From: a virus
DNA length: 64,000 bases
Direction: 5' to 3' (one strand)
IMG/VR virus record: IMGVR_UViG_3300020202_000062
Span: 1 to 64,000 of that record
The notes below the pieces were generated by a model. It worked only from the letters and a program-made list of their open reading frames with translations, was not told where the DNA came from and made no database searches. The first letter of the stretch is position 1; each line of letters opens with the position of its first letter. This document shows positions 1,036 through 58,268 of the stretch, in pieces. The translations under genes were made by a program, and so were the position numbers.

Positions 1036-1263
1036 ATGGAAAGAGATCCCGTTCAGATCAGGCGCATCTCAGACAAGATAGTCATGCTGTGGGAACTCAA
1101 TCCACAGTGGCGCATTGGAGAGTTGATCGACAATGCACATTTCCTCATCGAAGTAGAACACGGCGTAGATGAACTAGGTCGCGTATCCGATGAGCACATG
1201 GAAACAGCACTAGACGAACTCCTAGAGAGGAGCAAGAATGCCCCGAGTACTCGTAGTCGTTGA
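1036..1263 (+). CDS. Small conserved phage protein (DP-x-RI / LIDNA type)
   Basis: The protein has 75 residues and a strong AGGAG Shine-Dalgarno. The sequence MERDPVQIRRISDKIVMLWE, then NPQWRIGELIDNA, resembles the small YihD/DUF1040-like proteins (DP...RI...LW...NPxxRxxQLI.N) seen in bacteria and phages. That link is from memory of the pattern. Its last 26 bases overlap the nicotinamidase start, so it heads the NAD operon. The function is unknown. Confidence 0.8.
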   Translation: MERDPVQIRRISDKIVMLWELNPQWRIGELIDNAHFLIEVEHGVDELGRVSDEHMETALDELLERSKNAPSTRSR

Positions 1264-1837
1264 TGTACAGAATGACTTCTGCGAAGGCGGATCTCTTGCT
1301 GTGTCTGGTGGTACAAAGGTAGCACAACGAATCACTGATTTCGTTAATGCTTCTGGCGATAGATATGACTCGATTCTAGCAACTCGCGATTGGCATCCGG
1401 CTAATTGGCGTGAGATTGGATTCGGGCACTTCAGCGACGACCCCGACTACAAGGACACCTGGCCTCCACATTGTGTGGAGAAGACCTATGGTGCAGAGTT
1501 CCATCCTGACCTGCAAGTAACATTCCATGCAGAGTTCAAGAAGGGACAAGACGCAGCGGCCTATTCAGGCTTTGAAGGCAACTGGTCTCTGATGGGACGC
1601 CCATTCGGTATGGGTGAGTGGCTGGAGAACAACAGGATCACTCACGTTGACGTATGTGGTCTAGCCTTCGACTACTGTGTCAAGGCGACAGCACTAGATT
1701 CGGTAAGGTCAGGATACAGCACTGCTGTCATCACAGATCTAACCGCCTATGTGCATATGAACTCCTACGATTTGGCAGTCAATGAAATGATGATCGAAGG
1801 AGTCACCCTACAGACGGCGGCTTATTCGCTTTCCTAA
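1238..1837 (+). CDS. pncA: Nicotinamidase / isochorismatase-family amidohydrolase
   Basis: This 199-residue cysteine hydrolase probably deamidates nicotinamide to nicotinate. Visible PncA features are the N-terminal VVVDVQNDFCEGGSLAV with the catalytic Asp, the metal-site segment RDWHPANW, and DVCGLAFDYCVKATALDS carrying the nucleophilic Cys. PnuC, NadR-like and NAMPT-like genes follow, so it belongs to a nicotinamide/NAD cassette. PncA and NAMPT draw on the same nicotinamide pool but lead to nicotinate and NMN respectively, so having both is notable. An isochorismatase activity is less likely given the neighbours. Confidence 0.93.
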   Translation: MPRVLVVVDVQNDFCEGGSLAVSGGTKVAQRITDFVNASGDRYDSILATRDWHPANWREIGFGHFSDDPDYKDTWPPHCVEKTYGAEFHPDLQVTFHAEFKKGQDAAAYSGFEGNWSLMGRPFGMGEWLENNRITHVDVCGLAFDYCVKATALDSVRSGYSTAVITDLTAYVHMNSYDLAVNEMMIEGVTLQTAAYSLS

Positions 1838-1854
1838 CACTAAGGTAAACTACC

Positions 1855-2574
1855 ATGTTTGCTGCGGAATTTAGTCTAACCCAGTTGTTTACTGGGCCAC
1901 TAGAGTTCTTCGCGTTCATTACTTCTATTGCATGTGTGTGGCTTATCACAATCAAGAAGCCGCACCGAGTTGGAATCGGCAACTGGACTCTATTCCATTT
2001 CGACTTCAACTGGAACTGGCCGATCGGCATCATAACTTCGGTACTCTACTTCTTCATCTTCTGGAAGTACCACCTGTGGATGAATGCAATCCTTCAGATC
2101 TTCTACGTCCTCAGCGGTTTCTGGGGATGGTATCGATGGCTCAAGGGCTTCGATAAGAAGGATGAGATTCCGATCAAGCGTTTCGATACACCGAAAAGAA
2201 AGCCTGAGAATGGCTGGGGCTATGCTCAACATGCGTTGACGGGTTTCTGTATTGTGGCACTAGTTGCCATTTGCTATCCAGCCATGGTTCACTTCAAGGA
2301 TGCTGCTCCCTTCTGGGATAGCGTCCTGTTTGCAATGTCGGTCGTGGCACAGTTCGTCATGACCTGGAAGTACAAGGAACACTGGAAGATCTGGTTCGTT
2401 GAAGACATCATTGCGGTGTTCGTCTTCTGGAATCTAGGTCTTGGTGCAACGTCAGTCCTCTACGGTCTGTTCGCAATCAATGCAGTCCGTGGCATGGTGA
2501 CGTGGCGACAGATGGAAGCCGCAGAGCATCAAGGTAGGATGTCTCGCTATGCCGATAGTGATGGAAGAGCATAA
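1855..2574 (+). CDS. pnuC: Nicotinamide riboside/mononucleotide transporter PnuC
   Basis: This 239-residue polytopic membrane protein should facilitate uptake of nicotinamide riboside. About seven hydrophobic segments are visible, with the diagnostic FWGWYRWLKG loop and a Trp-rich substrate region (NWTLFHFDFNWNWPIGIITS). It sits between pncA and the NadR-like gene, which would trap imported riboside by phosphorylation. Its 3' end overlaps a small zinc-ribbon gene. Confidence 0.95.
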   Translation: MFAAEFSLTQLFTGPLEFFAFITSIACVWLITIKKPHRVGIGNWTLFHFDFNWNWPIGIITSVLYFFIFWKYHLWMNAILQIFYVLSGFWGWYRWLKGFDKKDEIPIKRFDTPKRKPENGWGYAQHALTGFCIVALVAICYPAMVHFKDAAPFWDSVLFAMSVVAQFVMTWKYKEHWKIWFVEDIIAVFVFWNLGLGATSVLYGLFAINAVRGMVTWRQMEAAEHQGRMSRYADSDGRA

Positions 2575-2755
2575 GGTAGAAGACCGTCCAGACACCTGCC
2601 CCGTCTGCAACACTAAGACGGTGGCAGGTGATCTGAGATCCTCAGTTTACATCTGGAATTGTGATGACTGTGGTGATTACTGGTCTTGTATACCTTGTGC
2701 CAAAGAAGACAGCAAGCGCCACGTAAAGGAACGCAAAGATGCCGAAGCCGTATAA
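2549..2755 (+). CDS. Zinc-ribbon protein
   Basis: The protein has 68 residues. Two CxxC pairs (CPVC, CDDC) are followed by CIPC, consistent with one treble-clef or ribbon zinc site and extra cysteines. It overlaps pnuC by 26 bases and the NadR-like gene by 17. ATG 2561 is a possible alternative start, but only ATG 2549 has a GGAT-type Shine-Dalgarno. The role in the NAD operon is unknown. Confidence 0.75.
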   Translation: MPIVMEEHKVEDRPDTCPVCNTKTVAGDLRSSVYIWNCDDCGDYWSCIPCAKEDSKRHVKERKDAEAV

Positions 2756-3764
2756 CGTAGGTGTTACAGCAGGCAAGTTCTATCCACCACACATGGGTCA
2801 TCACGGGTTGATTGATGAACTTTCCAGTCAGTGCGACGTTGGCTATGTTCTTGTTGTTTATCGCCATGACGAGAAGCCCGATATAGACCTTCGTCTCAAG
2901 TGGCTAGAGACTGAGCACGCGGGTCAAGGTAACCTAGTCTTCATCCCCGTGTCTGACATTCCTGGGCATGATGATGATTCAGTCGCATGGGCTAGGTATA
3001 CTCGCGAAGTTCTTCCTGAAGGAATTGCAATCGATGCGGTGTTCACTTCCGAGAACTATGGTGACACATGGGCAGCCGAACTGGGCTGCAAGCATGTCCA
3101 GTTTGATCTAGCGCGTGAGTCTTGGCCGGTGTCAGGGACTGCCGTTCGACTCGATCCTTATTCTAACTGGGAGTACCTCGGTTGGGATGCGAGACAGTAC
3201 TACGCCATGCGAGTCTGTATCGTAGGTGGCGAGTCAGTGGGCAAGTCAACAATGACTGAGCGCCTAGCAAAATACTTCCGAACCAAGAGTGTTGAGGAGT
3301 ATGGTCGCACCTATGTCGAGCGGCATGGAGTAGACCCTAAGGATCCAGTCATATGGCCTGCGATCCTACACAACCAGCCTCGCCTAGAAGATGAGGCTGC
3401 CTATGCCTCCAATGGTCTGGTGTTCTGCGATACAGACCTGATCACCACCATGATTTGGTATGAGCGTTGGGTGCACGACGGTAAGCAATTGTCGGCAGAA
3501 AAAGATCCCATGTATTGGGCTATCTATCGAGAGGCTGCGCGCCGCAGGTACGATCTTTACATCCTACTTCACCACGAAGATACAGACTGGGTGCAGGATG
3601 GGACCAGAACTGAGTCGGAACATCGCGCTTGGTTCACCAATCGAATCAAAGAAGAACTACTCTTTCACGCATGTCCACTCCGAGAAATCAAGGGTGGAAC
3701 ATGGGATGAGAAGTTCGAAGAAGCAAAGAACTACGTCTTTAGCAAATGGAAGATGCCACGATGA
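2739..3764 (+). CDS. nadR: NadR-like bifunctional NMN adenylyltransferase / ribosylnicotinamide kinase
   Basis: The protein has 341 residues. Residues 1-150 form a nucleotidyltransferase of the NMNAT type (GKFYPPHMGHHGLI with the HxGH signature at 18-21, and VSGTAVR matching the ISSTxxR motif at 131-137). Residues 157-340 form a P-loop kinase (GGESVGKST at 163-171). It lacks the N-terminal HTH of enterobacterial NadR, so it is probably purely enzymatic. It would convert NR to NMN and NMN to NAD, completing salvage with the NAMPT-like gene that overlaps by ATGA. Confidence 0.93.
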   Translation: MPKPYNVGVTAGKFYPPHMGHHGLIDELSSQCDVGYVLVVYRHDEKPDIDLRLKWLETEHAGQGNLVFIPVSDIPGHDDDSVAWARYTREVLPEGIAIDAVFTSENYGDTWAAELGCKHVQFDLARESWPVSGTAVRLDPYSNWEYLGWDARQYYAMRVCIVGGESVGKSTMTERLAKYFRTKSVEEYGRTYVERHGVDPKDPVIWPAILHNQPRLEDEAAYASNGLVFCDTDLITTMIWYERWVHDGKQLSAEKDPMYWAIYREAARRRYDLYILLHHEDTDWVQDGTRTESEHRAWFTNRIKEELLFHACPLREIKGGTWDEKFEEAKNYVFSKWKMPR

Positions 3765-5011
3765 CAGAACGTTTACCCGTAGAGACTTTTGACATTCCTG
3801 TCAGTGAAATTCGTCGGGGTTATAGGTCTGCCATCTACTTCAATCGGTCCAAGAAGGTACTTGAGCAGATCTCAACTGTTCCTTGCCCGAATGTAACGAT
3901 GCAGGTGTTTCAGAAAAAAGATGCTATCCTATGTGGCATCGATGAGGCTATCGCTGTTCTGAAGACATGCGCTGGACGGTGGAGTGATCTCGCTAAGGCT
4001 GAGAAACTCTTCGACGCTTACATGACTCACAAACTTCTTGCGCGGAAGTATCAGGCCACTAAGCACTTTGACAGGGCCGCTGACCAGTTGGCTAGCATGA
4101 TCTGGACAGAAGGACTTCTGGATGATCTGTGGGTGCCAAGTTGGGATAGGCTCGATGTAAAGGCATTGCATGATGGTGATGAGATCTCACCATGGGAACC
4201 GGTGATGCACATTGAAGGTCCTCTTGCGGATATTGTTCACCTTGAATCTGTTTACCTTGGTCTTCTGGCCAGACGAACAAAGGTTGCAACCAACGTTAAC
4301 CGCACGGTCACAGCCGCCAACGGGAAGCCGGTACTGTTCTTCGCAGATCGATTTGACCACTATGCAACACAAGGTGGAGATGGATACGCCGCTCATGTGG
4401 GTGGTGCTACATCAGTCGCATCCGATGCTATGGGTGCTTGGTGGGGCGACCACGGTATCGGCACCATGCCGCATGCTCTGATCGCAGCCTTTGATGGTGA
4501 TGTGGTCTGGGCTTCTAAGGCTTTCTCGAAGGTACTTCCTGAGGTGCCTCTGGTTGCTCTGGTCGACTTCAACAACGACTGTGTATATGACGCACTAGCA
4601 TGTGCTAAGGAGTTTGGCGATCGGCTTTATGCTGTTCGCCTAGACACTAGCGAGAACATGGTAGATCGTTCGATCTCACACATGAGCGAATACACTGCTG
4701 ACTATGCTGGCGGTATCACCTGGAAGTCTCCTGGCGATTATAAGCCAACTGGTGTCAACCCTCATCTCGTATGGAATGTACGTGAGGCGCTGGATAACGG
4801 TGGCTACGAGCATGTAAAGATCATTGTGTCAGGTGGTTTCGGGGTTGATAAGATCACAGCGTTTGAAGCAGATCATGTGCCGGTAGATTCCTATGCTGTT
4901 GGGTCGTCACTTCTTCAGGGGTCTTTTGACTTCACTGCTGACGTGGTCGACCCAGTATCAAAGGCTGGTCGCTGGTATCGAGAAAATGATCGACTGGAAA
5001 TAGTAGAATGA
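3761..5011 (+). CDS. nadV: Nicotinamide phosphoribosyltransferase (NAMPT/NadV-like)
   Basis: This PRTase-fold enzyme of about 416 residues is predicted to make NMN from nicotinamide and PRPP. Recognisable parts are RSAIYFNRSKKVLE near the N terminus, GGATSVASDAMGAWWGDHGI, GTMPHALIAAF, and the phosphate-binding VSGGFGVDKI near the C terminus. The start is taken as ATG 3761 (ATGA overlap with nadR) because GGAAG lies 8 bases upstream. The in-frame ATG 3746 has no ribosome-binding site. Nicotinate phosphoribosyltransferase is the alternative. NAMPT plus NMNAT is the minimal pathway described for phage NAD rebuilding. Confidence 0.88.
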   Translation: MTERLPVETFDIPVSEIRRGYRSAIYFNRSKKVLEQISTVPCPNVTMQVFQKKDAILCGIDEAIAVLKTCAGRWSDLAKAEKLFDAYMTHKLLARKYQATKHFDRAADQLASMIWTEGLLDDLWVPSWDRLDVKALHDGDEISPWEPVMHIEGPLADIVHLESVYLGLLARRTKVATNVNRTVTAANGKPVLFFADRFDHYATQGGDGYAAHVGGATSVASDAMGAWWGDHGIGTMPHALIAAFDGDVVWASKAFSKVLPEVPLVALVDFNNDCVYDALACAKEFGDRLYAVRLDTSENMVDRSISHMSEYTADYAGGITWKSPGDYKPTGVNPHLVWNVREALDNGGYEHVKIIVSGGFGVDKITAFEADHVPVDSYAVGSSLLQGSFDFTADVVDPVSKAGRWYRENDRLEIVE

Positions 5012-5282: not shown

Positions 5283-5357
5283 TCGGAGGTAGTTCAATGG
5301 TAGAACGTCGCCCTCTGGAGGCGAATGTTGGGGGTTCGAGCCCTCCCCTCCGAGCCA
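5283..5357 (+). tRNA. tRNA-Gln(CTG)
   Basis: Acceptor TCGGAGG/CCTCCGA, D-arm GTTCAATGGTAGAAC, anticodon stem TCGCC/GGCGA with loop CTCTGGA (CTG), encoded CCA. The last A of CCA is the first base of the next gene's ATG. The suppressor-type tRNA at 45598 shares its D-arm, the variable loop ATGTT and most of the anticodon arm. Confidence 0.93.
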
Positions 5358-6967: not shown

Positions 6968-7125
6968 TGGTAGCAGTATTGGTGATCAGCCTCATTCTGA
7001 TGTTCTTCGTATGCGTTATAGAGGACGACGCAGAAGTAGGTTGGAACCTACTTACTTTATGGCTGGTTATATGCGGGTTCTTTTTCTTGTTGGCAACGGT
7101 AGGGATTGCACTAAATGACAATTGA
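6967..7125 (+). CDS. Small two-TM membrane protein
   Basis: The protein has 52 residues and starts in TGATG. VAVLVISLILMFFVCVI and LLTLWLVICGFFFLLATVGI are separated by an acidic loop (EDDAEVG). It overlaps the sirtuin start by 11 bases. A membrane role next to an NAD-consuming enzyme is only a positional hint. Confidence 0.7.
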   Translation: MVAVLVISLILMFFVCVIEDDAEVGWNLLTLWLVICGFFFLLATVGIALNDN

Positions 7126-7846
7126 TGCTTCGAAGTTTCAGAAGATCGCTGTAGTTACTGGTGCGGGCATCTCAGCCCCCAGTGGGCTACCGACGTTCCG
7201 AGGTAAGGACGACAGTCTTTGGAACGACGAAGACTTCATGAACAAGTCCCACATCAACTACATCCGTTCTCATGTAGATCATGTAGATGAGATGTGGGGA
7301 TATTGGCGGCCATTCCGTGAAGGTTTAGCGACAGTCGAGCCAAACCCGGCACACTACGCTCTGGCCATCGCTGGTGAGCGTCAGCAGATCACGATCGGCA
7401 CGCAGAACATCGACGGCCTACATCAGAAGGCTGGATCTCATAACGTCTATGAACTGCACGGAACACTGTTCGAAGATAAGTGTCTAGATGAGTGCCAAGA
7501 GAATGAGTTCGGTAACTGGAACGTGAATGCTTGGCCCGCTGGTGAACATGATGCATGTCCAGAGTGTGGCGGTCCAATCCGACCTAACGCAGTGTTCTTT
7601 GGTGAGTTTCTACCACAGCGAGTAGTAGCAGCAGTAGAGAAGGCTGTCATTGAGTGTGACCTCTTTATGATGGTAGGTACATCTGGCATCGTATACCCAG
7701 TCGCCGGATATGTAGATGTAGCCTCCAAGTGGGGTAAGCCGACTCTCCTGGTCAACGATCAAGAGTGGGATCATCCTTATCCGTTTACTGAAAAGATCTT
7801 TGGCGACTGCGCCGAGATTCTTCCGGAGTTGTTCGGTGTCAACTAG
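7115..7846 (+). CDS. Sir2-family NAD-dependent deacylase (sirtuin)
   Basis: The protein has 243 residues. NAD-binding GAGISAPSGLPTFRG (16-30), TQNIDGLHQKAG, the catalytic His in VYELHGTLF, and a zinc module (KCLDEC, then CPECGGPI) are followed by VFFGE and MVGTSGIVYPVAG. This is the standard sirtuin order and length. It would consume NAD to deacylate proteins and release nicotinamide, which the nearby NAMPT-like gene could recycle. It could modify host proteins, or be an NADase. The catalytic residues look intact. Confidence 0.93.
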   Translation: MTIDASKFQKIAVVTGAGISAPSGLPTFRGKDDSLWNDEDFMNKSHINYIRSHVDHVDEMWGYWRPFREGLATVEPNPAHYALAIAGERQQITIGTQNIDGLHQKAGSHNVYELHGTLFEDKCLDECQENEFGNWNVNAWPAGEHDACPECGGPIRPNAVFFGEFLPQRVVAAVEKAVIECDLFMMVGTSGIVYPVAGYVDVASKWGKPTLLVNDQEWDHPYPFTEKIFGDCAEILPELFGVN

Positions 7847-10276: not shown

Positions 10277-10446
10277 TCATCAATACGCTGATTACATTAG
10301 GTATATTTGCAGCGCTTGCTCTAGTGATCACCCTCATGATCATATGGCCTCCACTCATACTTGGGATAGCGGCTGCTCCTGCGTTTATGATGGTGTACTT
10401 ATTTGTAGATGAGGAAAGGAGAGGGCGTGCACGACGATCTAGGTGA
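10273..10446 (+). CDS. Small two-TM membrane protein
   Basis: The protein has 57 residues. Hydrophobic IINTLITLGIFAALALVITL and IIWPPLILGIAAAPAFMMVY are followed by an Arg-rich tail (EERRGRARRSR). ATG 10273 forms an ATGA overlap and has GGAAG upstream. It overlaps the Thg1-like gene by 20 bases. Confidence 0.7.
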   Translation: MIINTLITLGIFAALALVITLMIIWPPLILGIAAAPAFMMVYLFVDEERRGRARRSR

Positions 10447-11191
10447 TCGGATGAAACGGTACGAGCATGTGACTCGCGCCTACCTTCCTCGCCGTACATA
10501 TACAATCGTTCGTGTAGATGGTCGCGCTTTCCACACCCTCACCAAGGGCTGTGAACGTCCGTATGACGAGAATCTAGCGGACTACATGGATCTGACTGCT
10601 GTGGCTCTCTGCAAAGAGATGGCAGGTGCACAGTTTGCATTCGTGCAGTCTGATGAGATCTCTGTTCTTCTGACAGATTTTGCTTCGACGCACACTGAGC
10701 CTTGGTTCGGCGGCAATATCCAGAAGATCTGTTCCATCTCAGCAGCAGTAGCAACCGCCGCGTTCAACAACTATTGGTGGCCTGCTGCGCCATGGCAGGA
10801 CTTTAGAGGTACTGCTTATTTCGATTCCCGTGTATTCACCATACCTGACCCAACCGAAGTGCACAACTACTTCGTTTGGCGACAGAAGGATGCTACACGG
10901 AATTCGATCTCAATGGCCGCACAGTCCCATTTCAGCCACGCTGAATTGCAAGGACTGTCTTCTGATGCACTGCAAGAAAAGATGTGGGTAGAAAAAGATG
11001 TCAACTGGAACAACTATCCAGTAGGCTTCAAGCGCGGTCGTTTGATCCGCAAGGTGTCGTACGAGCGAGTGATTCCCGCAGTGAATGGTGCACCTGAAAA
11101 GGTTGTTCCATCGTGGCGCTGGGCTTCGACTGAGCCAGATGTATTTACGGCATCAGAACAATTAAAGGAACTTATTCCTTCATACTCTTGA
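10427..11191 (+). CDS. thg1: Thg1-like tRNA 3'-5' polymerase / tRNA-His guanylyltransferase family
   Basis: The protein has 254 residues. MHDDLGDRMKRYE, RRTYTIVRVDGRAFHTLTKG with metal-binding Asp residues, and FVQSDEISVLLTDF are the palm-domain signatures of Thg1/TLP enzymes, which add nucleotides to the 5' end of tRNA in the 3'-5' direction. GTG 10427 with GGAG 5 bases upstream is preferred to ATG 10409. With tRNA genes around it and an RNA ligase at 40 kb, it may repair or edit tRNA 5' ends. The substrate is inferred. Confidence 0.92.
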   Translation: MHDDLGDRMKRYEHVTRAYLPRRTYTIVRVDGRAFHTLTKGCERPYDENLADYMDLTAVALCKEMAGAQFAFVQSDEISVLLTDFASTHTEPWFGGNIQKICSISAAVATAAFNNYWWPAAPWQDFRGTAYFDSRVFTIPDPTEVHNYFVWRQKDATRNSISMAAQSHFSHAELQGLSSDALQEKMWVEKDVNWNNYPVGFKRGRLIRKVSYERVIPAVNGAPEKVVPSWRWASTEPDVFTASEQLKELIPSYS

Positions 11192-14469: not shown

Positions 14470-14748
14470 ATGGACTGTTCAAGTTGTGGCCAGCGCCTTA
14501 CAGGCGACCCGTGCTACTCAGTCTTCATGGTAGATTACTTCGGTAAAGGTACTGGCATGTGGGGGCATTACTGCTCTGCGACGTGCGTCTTCCGTGATGT
14601 AGGTAACGTACTTATGAATGAAGTAAAGAAAGAACAAAGAGAAGAAGAAGATCAGATCGAGATGGAACTTGCTATGTCAGACATAGAAGAATGTGCTGTA
14701 GCAAGCCTTGATCTAGCAAGCGTTCTTGCAGGCGACGAATTTGGGTAG
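14470..14748 (+). CDS. Zinc-finger protein with acidic helical tail
   Basis: The protein has 92 residues. CSSCGQRL, then CYSV and HYCSATCVFRD give a treble-clef-like site, followed by EVKKEQREEEDQIEMELAMS and DIEECAVASLDLASVLAGDE. GGGGAAAG lies upstream of the ATG. The function is unknown. Confidence 0.78.
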   Translation: MDCSSCGQRLTGDPCYSVFMVDYFGKGTGMWGHYCSATCVFRDVGNVLMNEVKKEQREEEDQIEMELAMSDIEECAVASLDLASVLAGDEFG

Positions 14749-14751
14749 GTA

Positions 14752-15351
14752 ATGGACACTCGTAATGTAGCCGACCAGTACAAAGGGTGGGAAGAAGATC
14801 TCATCAAGAAGGATCTTCAGTCGAAGTCTTTCCCATTCTCTGTGTGCATGTTGCAGTTGCAGGGCGACTTTAACATGGGGACTGTTGTTCGTAATGCCAA
14901 CGTCTTCGGTGCAGAGAAGGTCTTCTATGTCGGTAACAAGAAGTGGGATCGTCGCGGCGCAGTAGGAACATACCACTACACTGAAGTAGAGTGGTGGGAT
15001 AACTGGGAAGACCTAGCAGATGGCATCTGGACAACACATCTAGTGGTTGCACTAGAAGACCGTGCTTATGCCGAGGCTATCTGTGATCAGAGCGATCGCC
15101 AGAAGGTCTATGATCTCGATGAATTCAATTGGGCAATAACGCCGGTCGAAGATAGTCCGTTCTTGATGATCTTCGATAAGGTCTTGATGCTAGTTGGTGA
15201 AGAGGGTGCCGGTATCCCAGAAGAGATACTTAAGCGCGCCGACTATGTAGTATCAATCCCGCAGTTCGGATCAGTCAGGTCCTTGAACGCGGGTGTAGCA
15301 AGTGGCATTGCCATGTACGATTTCGTTAGTAAATACAAGAGGAATATATAA
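14752..15351 (+). CDS. SpoU/TrmH-family RNA 2'-O-methyltransferase
   Basis: The protein has 199 residues. SPOUT motif 1 (GDFNMGTVVRNANVFGA), motif 2 (LVGEEGAGIPEEIL) and motif 3 (IPQFGSVRSLNAGVASGIAM) are all present, giving the SAM-binding trefoil knot. It probably methylates a ribose in tRNA or rRNA. A tRNA target, such as the wobble base or position 18, is suggested by the adjacent tRNA clusters. Confidence 0.93.
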   Translation: MDTRNVADQYKGWEEDLIKKDLQSKSFPFSVCMLQLQGDFNMGTVVRNANVFGAEKVFYVGNKKWDRRGAVGTYHYTEVEWWDNWEDLADGIWTTHLVVALEDRAYAEAICDQSDRQKVYDLDEFNWAITPVEDSPFLMIFDKVLMLVGEEGAGIPEEILKRADYVVSIPQFGSVRSLNAGVASGIAMYDFVSKYKRNI

Positions 15352-27013: not shown

Positions 27014-27043
27014 AAGGGACCAGCATCGTCTGGTCCTTTTGTA
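27014..27043 (+). terminator. Rho-independent terminator
   Basis: GGACCAG (27017-27023) and CTGGTCC (27030-27036) with loop CATCGT, extended by flanking A-T/G-U pairs and followed by TTTTGTATTT. It lies 25 bases after the 26734 gene. Confidence 0.88.
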
Positions 27044-27059
27044 TTTGAGAGGAAGTTTT

Positions 27060-28643
27060 GTGAGTCTAGCAGAACATCTGCATGTTGGTACTCCCCTGGT
27101 CTGGGTTGAAACAGATGAGCCTGACCGTATTACTGACATGATCGTGGCTCATTCACAGCGCCCCGTATTCCGTATCGATCCTTTCGAGGGTGTACTGGTC
27201 TACAAGAGGGGTCAATGGCGCAAGGTTCTGTTCAGTAACAACGGCGCTATGGATCTCTCCTGGAGATTCGAGGATGCAATCGCACACGTCTACAAAGAGC
27301 GTGGTGTATTCATCATCACCAATGCTCACAAGGTAGCAGAAGAAATCCCAGACCTGCTTCTGGGCGGTACGGCACAGTATCGTAGAGCATTCTACGATAA
27401 CAACAAAGATGACCTACCCTTGCAGTTGATCCTCCTCTCATGTGGTATGGATATCCCACCGGAGATTGCACGACACGCAGCAGTAGTGCCATCTTCTCTG
27501 CCTAACACAGCAGAACTAGCATACATCGTCACGCACATCTCTAATGAGGCTAACGAACCAGTTCTACCTGAGGCTGCTGACCTTACGCCTATCACTAGGG
27601 CTGGTCTAGGTCTCACCGAGTCTGAGTTCGTCCAGGCTTGTGTCCTATCTCTACGTGAGAGGGGCATCATCGATGCTGAGCACATCAACAATTTCAAGCG
27701 TGCCAAGGTTTCCTATGGTGGCATGCTTGAGATCCGTCGCCCTGAGATCAACTTCGATATGATCGGTGGCCTAGATCTGGCGAAGGAAACAATCAAGGCA
27801 GCAGTATGGGCGTGGCACAACCCGGAGCAGGCAGCAGAGTTTGGTGTATCACCTCTGCGCCGTATGCTTATGGTTGGTGTACCGGGCACTGGTAAGTCAG
27901 CGATCTGTGAGGCTACGGCCAATGAACTAGATCTAGAACTTGCAGTGCTCGGCGTAAGCAAGATGATGAGCAAGTGGATCGGTGAGTCTGAGTCCAACAT
28001 GCGTCGGGCTTTCGCTCAACTAGGAGCACTGAAGCCTGTTGTAGCATGGGATGATGAGTTCGGTCGATCAATGTCTGGCGGCGGTACGTCGAACGACGGA
28101 GGAACCACCGACCGTGTACACGGCGAGTTCCTTACTGGTCTACAAGAACTACCTGACGAAGTGTTCTACATGGCCGCCGCCAACCAAATCACAGGTCTAG
28201 CACCTGAGATCCTTCGAGCAGATCGTTTCGATAAGATCATGTTCGTGGGCTTCCCTACCGAAGAAGAACGTCAGAGCATCTTCGGTATCCACCTAGGTGA
28301 CCGTGCCTCTGAGCACAACCTAGAAGAACTTGCGGGGGCTACACGCTCCTTCACTGGCGCAGAGATCAAGGCACTTCTAAAGGAAGTTCGTAACAAGATC
28401 TCTGGTCCACAACGCCGACACATCACAGACGAAGACATTCTTCAGTTCGTTCCGAAGCAGAAGAACCGTATGTGGATCCGGCACAAACAAGACATCATAG
28501 CCATGTATCGACGTGCATTAGATGAATGGGATTGGGCATCCTCTGGCCAGTTGGCTGAGGCTCAAGACGTTATCAATGATCGTTTCGATGCTGGAGTACA
28601 TACCAAGAAACTAGCAAACGTTCAAGTTAAGAGATGGGCATAG
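27060..28643 (+). CDS. AAA+ unfoldase/segregase-like ATPase (CDC48/FtsH type)
   Basis: The protein has 527 residues and starts at GTG 27060 behind GAGAGGAAG. The N-terminal half (1-225) is a separate alpha/beta region. The AAA module has FDMIGGLDLAKETIKAAVW, Walker A MVGVPGTGKSA (271-281), pore-like SKMMSKWIGESE, Walker B VVAWDDEFGRS, and arginine finger LRADRFDKIM. This layout is typical of proteins that unfold tagged substrates. It sits in the Ubl region, so it could extract modified proteins. That link is by context only. Confidence 0.88.
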   Translation: MSLAEHLHVGTPLVWVETDEPDRITDMIVAHSQRPVFRIDPFEGVLVYKRGQWRKVLFSNNGAMDLSWRFEDAIAHVYKERGVFIITNAHKVAEEIPDLLLGGTAQYRRAFYDNNKDDLPLQLILLSCGMDIPPEIARHAAVVPSSLPNTAELAYIVTHISNEANEPVLPEAADLTPITRAGLGLTESEFVQACVLSLRERGIIDAEHINNFKRAKVSYGGMLEIRRPEINFDMIGGLDLAKETIKAAVWAWHNPEQAAEFGVSPLRRMLMVGVPGTGKSAICEATANELDLELAVLGVSKMMSKWIGESESNMRRAFAQLGALKPVVAWDDEFGRSMSGGGTSNDGGTTDRVHGEFLTGLQELPDEVFYMAAANQITGLAPEILRADRFDKIMFVGFPTEEERQSIFGIHLGDRASEHNLEELAGATRSFTGAEIKALLKEVRNKISGPQRRHITDEDILQFVPKQKNRMWIRHKQDIIAMYRRALDEWDWASSGQLAEAQDVINDRFDAGVHTKKLANVQVKRWA

Positions 28644-29264
28644 ATGGCAGACGTAGACGAATTAGGATTTAGTTTAGACGGCTTGGACGATCCCCCTGCT
28701 GCGCCACCGCAACAGCAGCAGGCTTTTGAAAAGGATCTGTACAAGAAGTGGTTCAGGACCAAGGACCGTGCAGGTTTCGTAAGCCTTCGACCATTCTTCA
28801 AGGCCGGTAAGGTTGTTATAGATATTGGTAAGGCTGATCCTAATTCGTCTGCTTTGCTCTCTTCTTCAGAGGCATACGTAGACGTAGTTCAGTTAGGCAC
28901 ATACCTGCGTGCGATTGTTGAAGGTCGCGCCGCGAAACTGTATCCCAAGAGCGATTACCTCAAGGTAGATACTGACGAAGGTCTAACGATCTTCGGTGGT
29001 AAGGGTACATTGAGTCGAGTCTTTAAGGCTCATCACTGGCCAGGCAAAGATAAGGGCACCTATGACTCTTCTGCGTTCCAGTGGAAGGTTGGTCATTTCG
29101 AAGGTAAAGAATCCTCAAACGGTTTGATCATGCCTGATTGGCAGAAGCCGAAGTCTGTTGATAGTATTAAGGTTACACGCACAGATATCGCAGAGATCTC
29201 ATACACTCTCGACATAGCGTTGCAAGCCTATGCTGTACAGAACAAGGATTGGTTACAAACATAA
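28644..29264 (+). CDS. Hypothetical protein
   Basis: The protein has 206 residues: MADVDELGFSLDGLDDPPAA with a Gln run, then GFVSLRPFFKAGKVVIDIGK, EAYVDVVQLGTYLRAIVEGR and DIAEISYTLDIALQAYAVQN. The beta-rich core with charged edges could be an OB-type nucleic-acid binder, but no motif confirms this. It starts right after the ATPase stop. Confidence 0.78.
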   Translation: MADVDELGFSLDGLDDPPAAPPQQQQAFEKDLYKKWFRTKDRAGFVSLRPFFKAGKVVIDIGKADPNSSALLSSSEAYVDVVQLGTYLRAIVEGRAAKLYPKSDYLKVDTDEGLTIFGGKGTLSRVFKAHHWPGKDKGTYDSSAFQWKVGHFEGKESSNGLIMPDWQKPKSVDSIKVTRTDIAEISYTLDIALQAYAVQNKDWLQT

Positions 29265-39709: not shown

Positions 39710-40057
39710 GTGAATAATATAGTAGAATTAAAGGACACTCTTAGAGAGTGTCTTTCTTTTTGCCCGGACGACTACAGGGGTCCTGTATCCTTACATTCGA
39801 AGCCCGATGGTGCGAGTCTGTTTATCGTTTGGAATGGCGCATACTTTCCCACTATGAACCTACGCAGGGGTGTCTGTGGCTGGATTAGATCATATGATCT
39901 CTCCAATAATATCTGGAATCTCATCGGTCTCTATGACGAGAAGACTGGCCTTGTCAAGTGGACGGATAGCCAAGGTTATGTATATGGTTCTGTAGACGCA
40001 TTCCACAACATGGTATTCGGTAAGGGTAGACTGTCATGCAAGAGGAAAGTAAGTTAG
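39710..40057 (+). CDS. CKRK-tailed family protein with 5' terminator hairpin
   Basis: The protein has 115 residues from GTG 39710 behind AAAGGAACAGG. PDDYRGPVSLHSKPDGASLF, GVCGWIRSYDLSNNIWNLIG, LYDEKTGLVKWTDSQGYVYG and RLSCKRKVS. Codons 9-17 contain a complete terminator. It is related by its aromatic core and tail to the genes at 6707 and 39340. The function is unknown. Confidence 0.74.
   Translation: MNNIVELKDTLRECLSFCPDDYRGPVSLHSKPDGASLFIVWNGAYFPTMNLRRGVCGWIRSYDLSNNIWNLIGLYDEKTGLVKWTDSQGYVYGSVDAFHNMVFGKGRLSCKRKVS
39734..39761 (+). terminator. Terminator/attenuator inside coding sequence
   Basis: GACACTC (39734-39740) and GAGTGTC (39746-39752) around TTAGA are followed by TTTCTTTTT. It lies 24 bases into the 39710 frame, just after tRNA-Gly, as does the one at 14006 after the tRNA-Met. 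Confidence 0.85.
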
Positions 40058-40731
40058 TTAAGTATCCTCGTACCATGCACCTACCGTGGTCTCCTGGCTT
40101 ACAAAACGATGACAGAGTGATAGAAGATCTGTCAGTCCTAGAATCTTGTGACGATGTAGTAGTCACAGAGAAGATGGATGGAGAGAATACTACTCTCTAT
40201 TGCGATACGGCTCATGCTAGGTCTTTGACGAGCGGCCCGCATCCATCTCGCGCCAAAGTCAAAGAACTCTGGCAAAGTCTCCGTTGGGATATTCCCCCAG
40301 GTATGCGTATCTGTGGTGAGAATATGTACGCAAAGCATTCAATCTATTATGACAGCCTCAGATCCTACTTCCTCGTCTTCAATATCTGGCTCGGAGATGT
40401 ATGTCTCTCCTGGGAAGATACAATTCTCTGGTGTGGACTTCTCGGACTCGATACAGTCCCTGTCCTATACCGTGGCAAATGGAACGAATCAGTCTGGTCC
40501 GATCCATATCATGCCGAGCGGTGGATTCGTCAAGGGCGAGATGATCATGACGGTGGCTCCGAGCGGGAAGGATTTGTTGTCCGACTGGCTGAAGAAATAC
40601 GGCTTGACGACTTCGGAAGAAGTGTGGCCAAGTATGTACGCAAAGGTCACGTACAAACAGACGAACACTGGATGTCGCAGGAAATCACGCCAAATAAACT
40701 AAGTGCGAACGTAGATAAAGATATCTACTAA
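40036..40731 (+). CDS. RNA ligase (T4 Rnl-like nucleotidyltransferase)
   Basis: The protein has 231 residues. Motif I VVTEKMDGENTTLY with the adenylated Lys, GMRICGENMYAKHSIYYDSL, and REGFVVRLA matching motif IV, then SVAKYVRKGHV for motif V, define a covalent nucleotidyltransferase. It is likely an ATP-dependent RNA ligase that seals cleaved tRNA. It sits inside tRNA cluster II, which supports a tRNA-repair role against anticodon nucleases. Confidence 0.88.
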   Translation: MQEESKLVKYPRTMHLPWSPGLQNDDRVIEDLSVLESCDDVVVTEKMDGENTTLYCDTAHARSLTSGPHPSRAKVKELWQSLRWDIPPGMRICGENMYAKHSIYYDSLRSYFLVFNIWLGDVCLSWEDTILWCGLLGLDTVPVLYRGKWNESVWSDPYHAERWIRQGRDDHDGGSEREGFVVRLAEEIRLDDFGRSVAKYVRKGHVQTDEHWMSQEITPNKLSANVDKDIY

Positions 40732-44662: not shown

Positions 44663-44762
44663 GCCCCGGTAGCTTAACGGTAAAGCAGCGGATAAAGAGA
44701 CTCAGTATCTCACGGTTTGGGTCTCTCCGTCGATGGTGGTTCGAATCCACCCTGGGGCACCA
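44663..44762 (+). tRNA. tRNA with 26-base insertion in the anticodon loop
   Basis: Acceptor GCCCCGG/CTGGGGC, D-arm GCTT/AAGC, anticodon stem GCGGA/TCCGT, variable CGAT, T-arm GGTGG-TTCGAAT-CCACC, discriminator A and CCA are all normal. The anticodon loop is 33 bases and contains GAGAC/GTCTC, or alternatively a mini arm GAGA-CTCAGTA-TCTC whose centre is CAG. The anticodon is unresolved; Leu(CAG) with a long variable arm is one reading. Confidence 0.68.
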
Positions 44763-44763
44763 T

Positions 44764-44831
44764 GGAAGAAATAGTGTAACCCGGTAGCACAGGCGACGGC
44801 CAGGCGAGGTTCGAATCCTCATCTTCCACCA
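44764..44831 (+). pseudogene. tRNA-like gene with collapsed anticodon arm
   Basis: Acceptor GGAAGA/TCTTCC, D-arm GTGT-AACCCGGTA-GCAC and T-arm GAGG-TTCGAAT-CCTC with CCA are present. The anticodon region is only GGC-GACG-GCC (3-bp stem, 4-base loop), so decoding is unlikely. Confidence 0.55.
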
Positions 44832-44832
44832 C

Positions 44833-44939
44833 GCCCCGATAGCTTAGTGGGAAAGCCTCTTTCTGGATCCTGTGAGGCTAGCAGGGAAAGGTTAGAGTAG
44901 CGCGCAAACACGGAGGTTCGATTCCTCCTCGGGGTACCA
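44833..44939 (+). tRNA. tRNA-like gene with extended anticodon-arm insertion
   Basis: Acceptor GCCCCGA/TCGGGGT, D-arm GCTT/AAGC, T-arm GGAGG-TTCGATT-CCTCC, discriminator A and CCA. Between D and T arms are 55 bases with CTCT/AGAG, CTTTC/GAAAG and CCTG/CAGG helices around TGAGGCTAG. No normal anticodon loop can be assigned. Confidence 0.58.
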
Positions 44940-44940
44940 A

Positions 44941-45082
44941 GAGCCTGTAGTGCACGCCGAAGCGTGACGTAACATGAGTAGCCATACGAATCCTAGGCCA
45001 CCCTTATGGCGAGGGGTGTTACGGTAGTGGGAGCACGACCGCCAGAAAGCGGTTAGGATGGGTTCGAATCCCATCAGGTTCA
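44941..45082 (+). tRNA. tRNA-like gene with structured D-loop insertion
   Basis: Acceptor GAGCCTG/CAGGTTC and T-arm ATGGG-TTCGAAT-CCCAT are perfect. The D-stem GTGC/GCAC encloses 79 bases holding CACGC-CGAA-GCGTG and nested CGTAACA/TGTTACG and GCCATA/TATGGC helices. The anticodon stem ACCGC/GCGGT has a 6-base loop CAGAAA without U33. Confidence 0.6.
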
Positions 45083-45083
45083 C

Positions 45084-45597: not shown

Positions 45598-45669
45598 GCT
45601 TCGGTAGTTCAATGGTAGAACAGCGCCCTCTAAAAGCGTATGTTGAGGGTTCGAATCCCTTCCGAGGCG
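45598..45669 (+). tRNA. Amber-suppressor-type tRNA (anticodon CTA), Gln-like body
   Basis: Acceptor GCTTCGG/CCGAGGC, D-arm GTTCAATGGTAGAAC and variable ATGTT identical to tRNA-Gln(CTG) at 5283, T-arm GAGGG-TTCGAAT-CCCTT. The anticodon loop is CTCTAAA, giving CTA that reads UAG. The stem GCGCC/AGCGT has one C-A mismatch next to the loop. No CCA is encoded. Confidence 0.85.
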
Positions 45670-45674
45670 CTCAA

Positions 45675-45858
45675 GATCACGTAGCTCAGGTGGATAGAGC
45701 AGCGCAAAAACGGAGGCGTGGTATCTAGAGAAGGTTTGCGGATGCACCGGGACCGGGCCGCATGCAGTAATGTATGTGGTTGGGGAACCTTAGCCCCCGG
45801 CAGGGAAGCGCGTTATCCTAACTCTAGCGTTGCGGAGGTTCGAGTCCTCCCGTGATCA
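45675..45858 (+). tRNA. tRNA-like gene with about 110-base structured insertion in the anticodon arm
   Basis: Acceptor GATCACG/CGTGATC, D-arm GCTCAGGTGGATAGAGC and T-arm GGAGG-TTCGAGT-CCTCC flank an anticodon arm GCGC/GCGT whose loop contains CTAGAG/CTCTAG, AAGGTT/AACCTT and TGCGG/CCGCA helices. An intron-like insertion is likely; the anticodon cannot be read until exact junctions are known. Confidence 0.6.
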
Positions 45859-46846: not shown

Positions 46847-47509
46847 TTGACTAGCACATTTGTAATCCCAGACAGGTTGTACTTCTACTCTGAGCGTGTA
46901 GCGACTCAGAAGGTTGACGAGAAGCAGAAGTATGGCAAGGAGAACATCTCCGATGCGGTAGATCCTACTGAGGCCAACCTTATATCTTCTCTTCTTGAGA
47001 ATGGCAATCACGCGCCGGTCATTGATTTCGACTACCCGATCGAAGTCATCCCAAGCACTACGCTGGGACACTTCCATCTCTACATTCATAAAGAAGTAGA
47101 GTGGAACAAATACAAGAACGTACTTAATGCACTTGCCAATGCTGATCTTATAGAAAAAGGTTACGCCAAGGCATCAATGCATAAAGGTTTTAGTGCAGTG
47201 CGCCCACCTGGCGTGCAAAAGTTGAACGCACCAGAGGTATCAGATACTCTTGGTGAGTTGGCTAAGGCTAAGCGCCGCAACTTTGAACTAGAACTTGAAC
47301 TAACCAAACTGCAAGGGCAAGTAGCAATGCTCAAGGCTCAGTTGGGCCAGCAGGGTGAGCATACGTGCAAGTGGGACTGTGGCTACAGTACAGACGTGCT
47401 GACAGATCTCAACTACCATTACTTTGCTTACTGTCCTTTAGCAGAACAACAAACACCACCACCTGGAGAGGAGGCGAAACGCAATGGCACTATACAGGAC
47501 GCTTTTTAA
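46847..47509 (+). CDS. Hypothetical protein with coiled coil and zinc-like end
   Basis: The protein has 220 residues and a TTG start after AGGG. VDPTEANLISSLLENGNHAP, a heptad stretch (RRNFELELELTKLQGQVAML), and HTCKWDCGYSTDVLTDLNYH with Cys/His residues. It overlaps the nucleotidyltransferase gene. The function is unknown. Confidence 0.72.
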   Translation: MTSTFVIPDRLYFYSERVATQKVDEKQKYGKENISDAVDPTEANLISSLLENGNHAPVIDFDYPIEVIPSTTLGHFHLYIHKEVEWNKYKNVLNALANADLIEKGYAKASMHKGFSAVRPPGVQKLNAPEVSDTLGELAKAKRRNFELELELTKLQGQVAMLKAQLGQQGEHTCKWDCGYSTDVLTDLNYHYFAYCPLAEQQTPPPGEEAKRNGTIQDAF

Positions 47510-48158
47510 GGGAATCTGTGGGTCTATAGCCTACGGATTAAACCACGCAGACAGCGACGTAGATGAACGTGGCGTGTTCGCCTACCCTACCAATGTGGTC
47601 CTCGGGCTGGACATGCCAGCCGAAACCATCGAAGTACATGAGCCTGACGTGTGCCTACATGAGGTTGGGAAGTTCTTGCGCCTTGCAAGGGCGAACAACC
47701 CTAACATCCTAGAGATGTTCTGGCTCGAAGAGTATACAGAAATGACCCCTGAGGGCTATATGCTTCTCGGTGCTCGTGACATCTTCTTGTCTCAGAAGGT
47801 TCGTAAGACTTATGCGGGCTACGCTATGTCCCAGATCCATAGGCTAGAAGTCAGAGCAGAGAAGGGTGACGCATCCTTTGGGTCAGACCTTCGTAAGCGA
47901 TACTCTAAGCACGCGCGACATTGCTTCAGGTTAATTCAACAAGGGCGTATGATCCTTGAGACTGGTAAACTTGTCGTCAAGGTACCTAACCGAGATGAAC
48001 TGTTTGCCATAGGTGAGATGGAACCAGAAGCATTGATTGCGCGATTCAATGAAGAGTACGAAGACTTCAAGAACGTCAAATCTGACCTCCCAGAGGAACC
48101 AGACAGCGATAAGATCAATGAACTTCTTCTGAAGATCAGGCGACTGAACTACTCATGA
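47484..48158 (+). CDS. Predicted nucleotidyltransferase (Pol-beta superfamily)
   Basis: The protein has 224 residues. ICGSIAYGLNHADSDVDERG is the GS...DxD active site of the minimal/YcgL-type nucleotidyltransferases. A helical part follows (EVGKFLRLARANNPNILEMF), then SKHARHCFRLIQQGRMILET. It could adenylylate RNA or protein. The substrate is unknown. Confidence 0.84.
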   Translation: MALYRTLFKGICGSIAYGLNHADSDVDERGVFAYPTNVVLGLDMPAETIEVHEPDVCLHEVGKFLRLARANNPNILEMFWLEEYTEMTPEGYMLLGARDIFLSQKVRKTYAGYAMSQIHRLEVRAEKGDASFGSDLRKRYSKHARHCFRLIQQGRMILETGKLVVKVPNRDELFAIGEMEPEALIARFNEEYEDFKNVKSDLPEEPDSDKINELLLKIRRLNYS

Positions 48159-57254: not shown

Positions 57255-58268
57255 CTACTTAACCCTTATATCGTGTGGAGCAGATTCTATCACACCATGA
57301 GGGGTTACACCAATCAGTTGTGCTTTCTCTTTGAACTCTGGGAGCGTGTGTGCACCCACATAAGACATTGCACTTCTTAGTCCGCCCATCAGGTAGTTGA
57401 TAACTTCTTTTACTGAGCCTCTATATGGTACAAATCCACTGACACCCTCAGCATGTTCTCTGCCGCTGGCTTCTGTAGACGCCATGCCACGGTAAGCCTT
57501 GACCTTTTCACCATCCAGTTCGATCACCTCACCAGGGGCTTCATCGGTCCCTGCAAATAGACTACCGATCATAACCACATCTGCACCAGCGGCAAAGGCT
57601 TTGGCTAGGTCACCTGGGTTGCGGATTCCACCGTCAGCGATGATTGATACATCAGCAAACTTTGCGGCCTCAGCGCAATCCATAATAGCAGTAACCTGAG
57701 GCACACCTACGCCAGTCATGACGCGGGTAGAGCATGCTGCTCCTGGGCCAATGCCGACCTTAACAGCATGAGCACCTGCACTAGCCATTGAAAATACGGC
57801 CTTGCCTGTGGCTACATTACCGGCCACAATCCAGACATTGTCTGCGTACTTGTTTGCGATGTACTCTATTGTATGCAAAGCATGCTGGGAATGGCCATGG
57901 GCAATGTCGAAGACAATAGAAGAAACCCCAGCATCCACTAGAGCATCGATTCTGTCGTAATCTTTAACCCCTACGGCAGCGCCTACAGCGAGGCCATCGT
58001 CGGCTAGGAACTTAACCTTCTTCACTTGCTTCGCTGCGTACATGTTCCTATGGATAATACCTAAGCCACCGTTGTAAGCCATGGTTGCAGCCATCGCCCC
58101 TTCGGTTACTGTGTCCATGTTAGCAGAGATAAGTGGGATCTGAAGATGAACAAACTTATCGCCTGCCTTCATCTTGGATGAAACGTCGCAATTGCTTCTT
58201 GATGCCACGGTTGAAAACTCGGGCACGATAAGAACGTCATCGAATGACAATCCCATACGTAGTGACAT
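57255..58268 (-). CDS. IMP dehydrogenase / GMP reductase family enzyme
   Basis: The protein has 337 residues and no CBS domains. [33 protein letters not shown] with the catalytic Cys, [20 protein letters not shown] and [17 protein letters not shown] define the family. GMP reductase converts GMP to IMP; IMPDH converts IMP to XMP. The loop resembles GMP reductase slightly more. Both use purine nucleotides and NAD(P), linking it to the NAD module. Confidence 0.92.

What the first reader, a model, noticed from the sequence alone, without database searches (positions are those of the whole stretch)
45598..45669. Amber-suppressor tRNA derived from the phage's own tRNA-Gln
Anticodon loop CTCTAAA gives CTA. 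The D-arm and variable loop are identical to the tRNA-Gln(CTG) at 5283, and the anticodon arm is clearly related, so a CTG to CTA change in a duplicate is likely. Many genes here end in TAG, so suppression would have to be partial or conditional.
Basis: partly seen in the sequence, partly recalled or inferred. Interest (0 to 1): 0.86.

Follow-up and report, generated by a model that had tools for sequence, protein, structure and literature searches.

The report
Phage amber-decoding tRNA, code unchanged
This virus of bacteria carries a tRNA that could make ribosomes read through the stop codon TAG, yet it ends about a quarter of its own genes with TAG, so the tRNA is probably a weak or conditional tool, perhaps aimed at the host, rather than a sign of a changed genetic code.

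Summary
Window 45598-45669 (+) is an intact tRNA gene with anticodon CTA (ARAGORN; Rfam 63.7 bits, cut-off 29). Its D-arm plus variable loop match only the phage's own tRNA-Gln(CTG) among 698 tRNAs compared, so descent from tRNA-Gln is well supported. It is not a simple CTG-to-CTA change: 20 of 72 positions differ and the acceptor stem is new (G1-C72 instead of the U1-A72 used in bacterial Gln pathways), so glutamine charging is doubtful. The phage keeps the standard code: TAG ends 36 of 148 predicted genes, with no sign of readthrough targets. Best reading: a weak or tuned amber suppressor in a non-recoded phage, possibly acting on host termination. Such tRNAs are known (XacN1, Zeta crAss-like phages); I found no description of the mismatch subclass. 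Charging and readthrough are untested. Five bases downstream lies an unannotated tRNA-like RNA with homologs in Streptomyces and relatives, perhaps more novel than the tRNA.

The parts
45598..45669 (+). CTA-anticodon tRNA gene (acceptor GCTTCGG/CCGAGGC, discriminator G73 at 45669, no encoded CCA)
   Evidence: ARAGORN; Rfam tRNA 63.7 bits; sequence
45630..45632 (+). anticodon CTA, inside loop CTCTAAA 45628-45634
   Evidence: ARAGORN anticodon position 33
45627..45635 (+). C31 (45627) and A39 (45635): unpaired bottom of the anticodon stem, leaving 4 bp
   Evidence: recurrent in viral CTA tRNAs
5283..5357 (+). tRNA-Gln(CTG), likely parent of the tRNA body
   Evidence: 46 of 58 identical over the body (positions 8-65 of the gene); best of 25 phage tRNAs, next best 40 of 58; D-arm plus variable loop unique to the pair
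45675..45858 (+). neighbouring tRNA-like RNA (context): acceptor, D and T arms kept, anticodon arm replaced by a short hairpin plus a conserved ~100-nt domain
   Evidence: homologs in Streptomyces phages and actinobacterial genomes; 23 of 49 predicted pairs with two-sided changes
10409..11191 (+). Thg1-like tRNA 5'-end guanylyltransferase (context)
   Evidence: Pfam PF04446, E 1.7e-30
40036..40731 (+). RNA ligase (context)
   Evidence: Pfam PF09414, E 6.6e-32
47484..48158 (+). RlaP RNA-repair nucleotidyltransferase (context)
   Evidence: Pfam PF10127, E 5.6e-23

Best explanation
The element is a genuine tRNA gene whose product is expected to decode UAG. It arose from a copy of the phage's own tRNA-Gln(CUG): the D-arm, variable loop and most of the anticodon arm were kept, three G-to-A changes (tRNA positions 36, 37 and 39) made the loop CUCUAAA and broke the C31-G39 pair, and the acceptor stem was remodelled so that it starts with G1-C72. 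The phage still uses UAG as a stop, so the tRNA is unlikely to be an efficient suppressor throughout infection. The most likely role is a weak, tuned or late-acting amber suppressor, causing low-level readthrough of UAG-terminated messages, host as well as phage, possibly to disturb host or defence proteins. Shown: the gene, the anticodon, the relation to tRNA-Gln, the standard code, and the recurrence of C31-A39 in viral CTA tRNAs. Inferred: expression, charging, amino acid, decoding, weakness and purpose.
For: Intact tRNA, Rfam 63.7 bits; CTA anticodon in a CTCTAAA loop, the loop of nearly all viral CTA tRNAs in the sample (partly by selection, since the scans fixed most of it). D-arm and variable loop shared only with own tRNA-Gln(CTG); the next best own tRNA is well below. 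TAG ends 36 of 148 genes, including some of the largest genes and DNA polymerase III alpha, and coding density does not rise when TAG is read as sense (0.89 to 0.91), so strong suppression would be costly. C31-A39 occurs in 29 of 120 viral CTA tRNAs and 0 of 578 others (Fisher p about 3e-24), also 0 of 89 others that share A36-A38. It is seen in 0 of 19 contigs that look TAG-recoded against 27 of 78 that do not (p 0.001; thresholds 0.08 to 0.15 give p 0.0006 to 0.017, rank test p 0.036), which fits a tuned subclass for standard-code phages. The C31-G39 pair is intact in the tRNA-Gln parent, so the mismatch is a derived change that converges on the class. Precedents: XacN1 carries two CUA suppressor tRNAs with no target found (PMC5852040); non-recoded Zeta crAss-like phages too (PMC12386605).
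Against: No data on expression, CCA addition, charging or readthrough. No phage gene shows a readthrough target: same-frame neighbours after TAG are not enriched (7 of 19 against 12 of 38, p 0.77), and backup stops are not enriched. TAG use is higher, not lower, than in relatives without the tRNA (24% against 15%). The tRNA was not found in the related phage contigs examined, so conservation within the phage lineage is unsupported. That C31-A39 weakens suppression is not shown; unpinning the other end of the stem can raise readthrough (PMC13092985).
Confidence: 0.5

Rival explanations
1. Inactive relic: a tRNA-Gln copy that drifted after losing function, transcribed perhaps, but not charged or not used by ribosomes.
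For: Gln identity pair U1-A72 lost, C31-A39 unpaired, no encoded CCA; not found in related contigs; sits among tRNA-like RNAs with abnormal anticodon arms.
Against: All other stems pair, the Rfam score is among the better ones of the array, the acceptor stem is fully paired although its sequence is new, and the mismatch follows a specific pattern found in independent viral CTA tRNAs rather than random decay. Many other tRNAs of this phage also lack an encoded CCA.
Confidence: 0.2
2. Defence role without decoding: the RNA serves as decoy or substrate in the fight over host tRNA-cutting enzymes.
For: The same region encodes tRNA repair enzymes: RNA ligase, RlaP, Thg1. Phage tRNAs that escape anticodon nucleases are proposed for mycobacteriophages (PMC10264068).
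Against: A CUA tRNA cannot replace any sense tRNA; I know of no anticodon nuclease that would need this loop as bait.
Confidence: 0.13
3. Pre-emergence of a code change: a suppressor gained before TAG codons accumulate in genes, as proposed for some crAss-like phages.
For: Suppressor tRNAs ahead of recoding are described (PMC7886860).
Against: TAG is more frequent as a stop here than in relatives, the opposite of what clears the way for recoding; the C31-A39 class was not seen in contigs that look recoded.
Confidence: 0.1
4. Programmed readthrough of a few phage genes, fusing neighbours that share a frame across TAG (for example 14470-14748 with the SpoU methylase, or 27039-28643 with 28644-29264).
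For: Several adjacent genes are in the same frame across TAG.
Against: The frequency is what chance gives (p 0.77), and the downstream genes have their own start codons at or near the junction.
Confidence: 0.07

Closest known systems
CUA suppressor tRNAs of Xanthomonas phage XacN1 (PMC5852040)
   Same: Large phage, big tRNA array, CUA anticodon, TAG still a stop, no identified readthrough target
   Different: Different host group; anticodon-stem details of XacN1 not compared here
CTA suppressor tRNAs of non-recoded Zeta crAss-like phages (PMC12386605)
   Same: Suppressor tRNA kept without TAG recoding; authors suggest an effect on host proteins
   Different: In the cases described there TAG is rare and followed shortly by another stop; here TAG ends 24% of genes with no extra backup stops
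CTA suppressor tRNAs of TAG-recoded (code 15) phages (PMC9523058, PMC7886860)
   Same: Same loop CTCTAAA
   Different: Those phages have in-frame TAG; none of 19 contigs that look recoded has C31-A39
tRNAs with 4-bp anticodon stems that read stop codons (PMC13092985)
   Same: One end of the anticodon stem unpaired, C at position 34
   Different: The experimentally tested cases open the top pair 27-43; here the bottom pair 31-39 is open

Membership tests
Phage-encoded amber suppressor tRNA | Complete tRNA cloverleaf | tested here: met
   one mismatch, 31-39
Phage-encoded amber suppressor tRNA | CUA anticodon with U33 in a 7-nt loop | tested here: met
   Loop CTCTAAA
Phage-encoded amber suppressor tRNA | Charged with an amino acid and reads UAG on the ribosome | not testable with these tools
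   Needs tRNA-seq, charging assay and reporter
TAG-recoded phage (genetic code 15) | In-frame TAG in genes; coding density rises when TAG is read as sense | tested here: not met
   Density 0.89 to 0.91; 36 of 148 genes end in TAG
Glutamine-accepting tRNA (bacterial) | U1-A72 first pair, relied on by Gln amidotransferases and part of the bacterial Gln identity set (PMC9976931) | tested here: not met
   G1-C72 here, U1-A72 in the parent tRNA-Gln
Glutamine-accepting tRNA (bacterial) | G73 discriminator and U35 | tested here: met
Pyrrolysine tRNA | Reduced D-loop and non-canonical T-loop (own knowledge), with PylRS | tested here: not met
   Canonical D-loop AATGGTA and T-loop TTCGAAT; PylRS was not searched for
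YrlA Y RNA | Rfam RF02553 gathering score 69 | tested here: not met
   30.5 bits across the junction of two adjacent genes; a similar weak hit lies over two adjacent ordinary tRNAs in L007; no TROVE/Ro60 gene in the phage

The most novel reading that the evidence does not exclude
Viral amber tRNAs contain a distinct subclass marked by an open C31-A39 pair, found only in phages that keep the standard code. The open pair would tune how the tRNA reads stop codons (weaker on UAG, or extended to UAA as the 4-bp-stem hypothesis suggests), making it a modulator of termination, mainly of host genes, rather than a recoding tool.
Probability: 0.25. Interest if true: 0.7.

Novelty: new member of a known kind. 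Interest (0 to 1): 0.48.

Why it matters
Why phages with an ordinary code keep stop-codon-reading tRNAs is an open question raised in several papers (PMC5852040, PMC7886860, PMC12386605). In my sample the C31-A39 signature separates some of these tRNAs from those of recoded phages, and it can be tested by a one-base change at position 39 in an amber reporter. If the mismatch sets suppression strength or codon range, it would explain how a phage can carry an amber tRNA and still end a quarter of its genes with TAG.

Tried and rejected
Genome-wide recoding of TAG: rejected. Programmed readthrough: same-frame neighbours across TAG not above chance. Backup stops after TAG: not enriched. Stop context: C after TAG is rare here (1 of 36 against 28 of 112 after other stops, p 0.003) and not rare in relatives lacking the tRNA, but it is a post-hoc test on small numbers and is not seen in other CTA-bearing standard-code contigs, so I give it no weight. 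Origin from tRNA-Arg(TCT), suggested by 83% similarity to that of Streptomyces phage Faust: less likely, because D-arm plus variable loop match only the own tRNA-Gln. A common parent isotype for the C31-A39 class: none found. Conservation in relatives: contigs related by major capsid protein did not match this tRNA; an exact pattern with D-arm, loop and variable loop found nothing else in viral contigs. Y RNA reading: junction artefact, no Ro60/TROVE gene. A first hand count of recoded contigs (0 of 22 against 28 of 76) was slightly off and is replaced.

Full report
What is there. The window is the first 64 kb of a 158,928-base virus record. ARAGORN finds 26 tRNAs and a tmRNA in it. At 45598-45669 lies a tRNA gene with anticodon CTA and loop CTCTAAA, supported by Rfam at 63.7 bits. 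Stems: GCTTCGG/CCGAGGC, GTTC/GAAC, GCGC(C)/(A)GCGT with C31-A39 unpaired, GAGGG/CCCTT; discriminator G73; no CCA encoded. 'tRNA-Pyl' in the program output only reflects the anticodon. No predicted gene overlaps it.

Origin. Against the phage's other tRNAs, the body (positions 8-65 of the gene) matches tRNA-Gln(CTG) at 46 of 58 sites; the next best own tRNA reaches 40. The D-arm GTTCAATGGTAGAAC occurs in 1 of 578 non-CTA tRNAs in my collection, namely this tRNA-Gln, and the variable loop ATGTT in 5; both together only in these two genes. But 20 of 72 positions differ. The anticodon arm gained three G-to-A changes, at tRNA positions 36, 37 and 39. The acceptor stem and discriminator match at only 6 of 14 sites... 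these are 14 of the 15 such positions scored by the script; a gapped alignment places TCGG/CCGA of the tRNA-Gln acceptor three pairs further in, as if the stem had slipped by three pairs (inference). The first pair changed from U1-A72 to G1-C72. Gln amidotransferases rely on U1-A72 and it is part of the bacterial Gln identity set, while G1-C72 belongs to Glu (PMC9976931). So the amino acid is open; Gln should not be assumed. The host is probably an actinobacterium (inference: an adjacent gene product has relatives only in actinophages, and the neighbouring RNA has relatives only in Actinobacteria and their phages); many actinobacteria make Gln-tRNA by the amidotransferase route (own knowledge).

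Code. With a simple codon-usage gene finder, TAG ends 36 of 148 genes, TAA 89 and TGA 23. TAG enders include DNA polymerase III alpha (62972-66307; named from its sequence and PHROGs), the 2,792-residue product at 116036-124414 and other large genes. Coding density hardly changes if TAG is read as sense. Five related records without a CTA tRNA, fetched nearly whole, use TAG in 15% of genes. There is no excess of same-frame neighbours or backup stops after TAG. The phage uses the standard code and shows no adaptation to strong UAG suppression.

The mismatch. Two pattern scans of viral contigs, neither of which fixes bases 31 or 39, gave 120 distinct CTA tRNAs including this one. C31-A39 occurs in 29 of these and in 0 of 578 other tRNAs of the same records; other mismatches at 31-39 are no commoner in CTA tRNAs than elsewhere. 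Among 89 other tRNAs that share A36-A37-A38 it is also absent. At 85% identity the CTA tRNAs fall into 99 clusters, 17 of which have the feature. Splitting the 97 contigs of 3 kb or more by whether coding density rises by at least 0.10 when TAG is read as sense, 0 of 19 apparently recoded contigs carry it against 27 of 78 others (p 0.001); other thresholds from 0.08 to 0.15 give p 0.0006 to 0.017, and a rank test p 0.036. In this phage the parent tRNA-Gln has C31-G39, so the change to A39 is derived here and converges on the class.

How it may work. Loss of one terminal pair of the anticodon stem is known to alter stop-codon reading. According to PMC13092985, a top-pair opening makes a CUA variant of tRNA-Thr read UAG more efficiently, and lets a CUA variant of tRNA-Trp read UAA. 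Whether the bottom pair acts likewise is not known to me. Since strong suppression would extend 36 phage proteins, a weak or conditional suppressor is most economical. Authors of two crAss-like phage studies suggest that suppressor tRNAs impair host proteins, defence proteins included (PMC7886860, PMC12386605). The neighbourhood fits a phage invested in tRNA upkeep: RNA ligase, RlaP, Thg1 and a SpoU methylase. The purpose remains inference.

Comparison. Phage CUA tRNAs without recoding are known: XacN1 has two, with no target found (PMC5852040), and some Zeta crAss-like phages keep them. The finding is a new member of that kind. I found no description of the C31-A39 subclass, but the library searched holds open-licence papers only.

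A neighbour worth attention. Five bases separate the tRNA from a tRNA-like RNA at 45675-45858, with acceptor, D and T arms but no anticodon loop; in its place are a hairpin with a loop such as AAAAACGGAG and a highly conserved domain, GGTTTGCGGATGCACCGGGACCGGGCC...GGTTGGGGAACCT...CCCCCGGCAGGGAAGCGCGTT. Homologs occur in Streptomyces phages, one soil viral contig, and nine Streptomyces, Streptosporangium, Planotetraspora and Herbidospora genomes. Of 49 predicted pairs, 23 show two-sided changes. It matches no Rfam family except as a stretched tRNA in one bacterial copy, and it is sporadic: in a pattern search of 198 genomes of the phylum only the centre genome matched. It is reported as noticed in passing.

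Noticed in passing
window 45675-45858 (+); L005 and L006 about 2995-3186, L007 6052-6237, L269-L277: Unannotated tRNA-like RNA: tRNA acceptor, D and T arms, anticodon arm replaced by a covarying hairpin and a nearly invariant ~100-nt domain. Found in Streptomyces phages and as single genes in Streptomyces, Streptosporangium, Planotetraspora and Herbidospora; no Rfam family of its own. Candidate new RNA family.
   Followed up: partly
window 44663-44762, 44763-44831, 44833-44939, 44941-45083 (+): Run of abutting tRNA-like sequences with abnormal anticodon or D arms: a 33-nt anticodon loop, a tiny anticodon arm, an expanded arm, and a long D-loop insert; the first three end in CCA. The second and fourth are read by eye. 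No match in annotated phages.
   Followed up: partly
window 10409-11191, 40036-40731, 47484-48158, 14752-15351 (+): tRNA repair and modification genes among the tRNAs: Thg1, RNA ligase, RlaP, SpoU methylase.
   Followed up: no
window 1238-5011 and 7115-7846 (+): Isochorismatase, NMN transporter, AAA_28 and phosphoribosyltransferase-type genes and a Sir2 protein: looks like NAD salvage, perhaps against NAD-depleting defences.
   Followed up: no
window 57255-58268 (-): A 337-residue protein that reads like an IMP dehydrogenase (by eye; PHROGs says dehydrogenase).
   Followed up: no
CTA tRNAs among loci L100-L230: 13 of 29 C31-A39 CTA tRNAs also have an unpaired top pair 27-43, leaving three anticodon-stem pairs.
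   Followed up: no
L104 8331-8486: Two adjacent, different CTA tRNAs in one viral contig, both with an A-C mismatch at 30-40.
   Followed up: no
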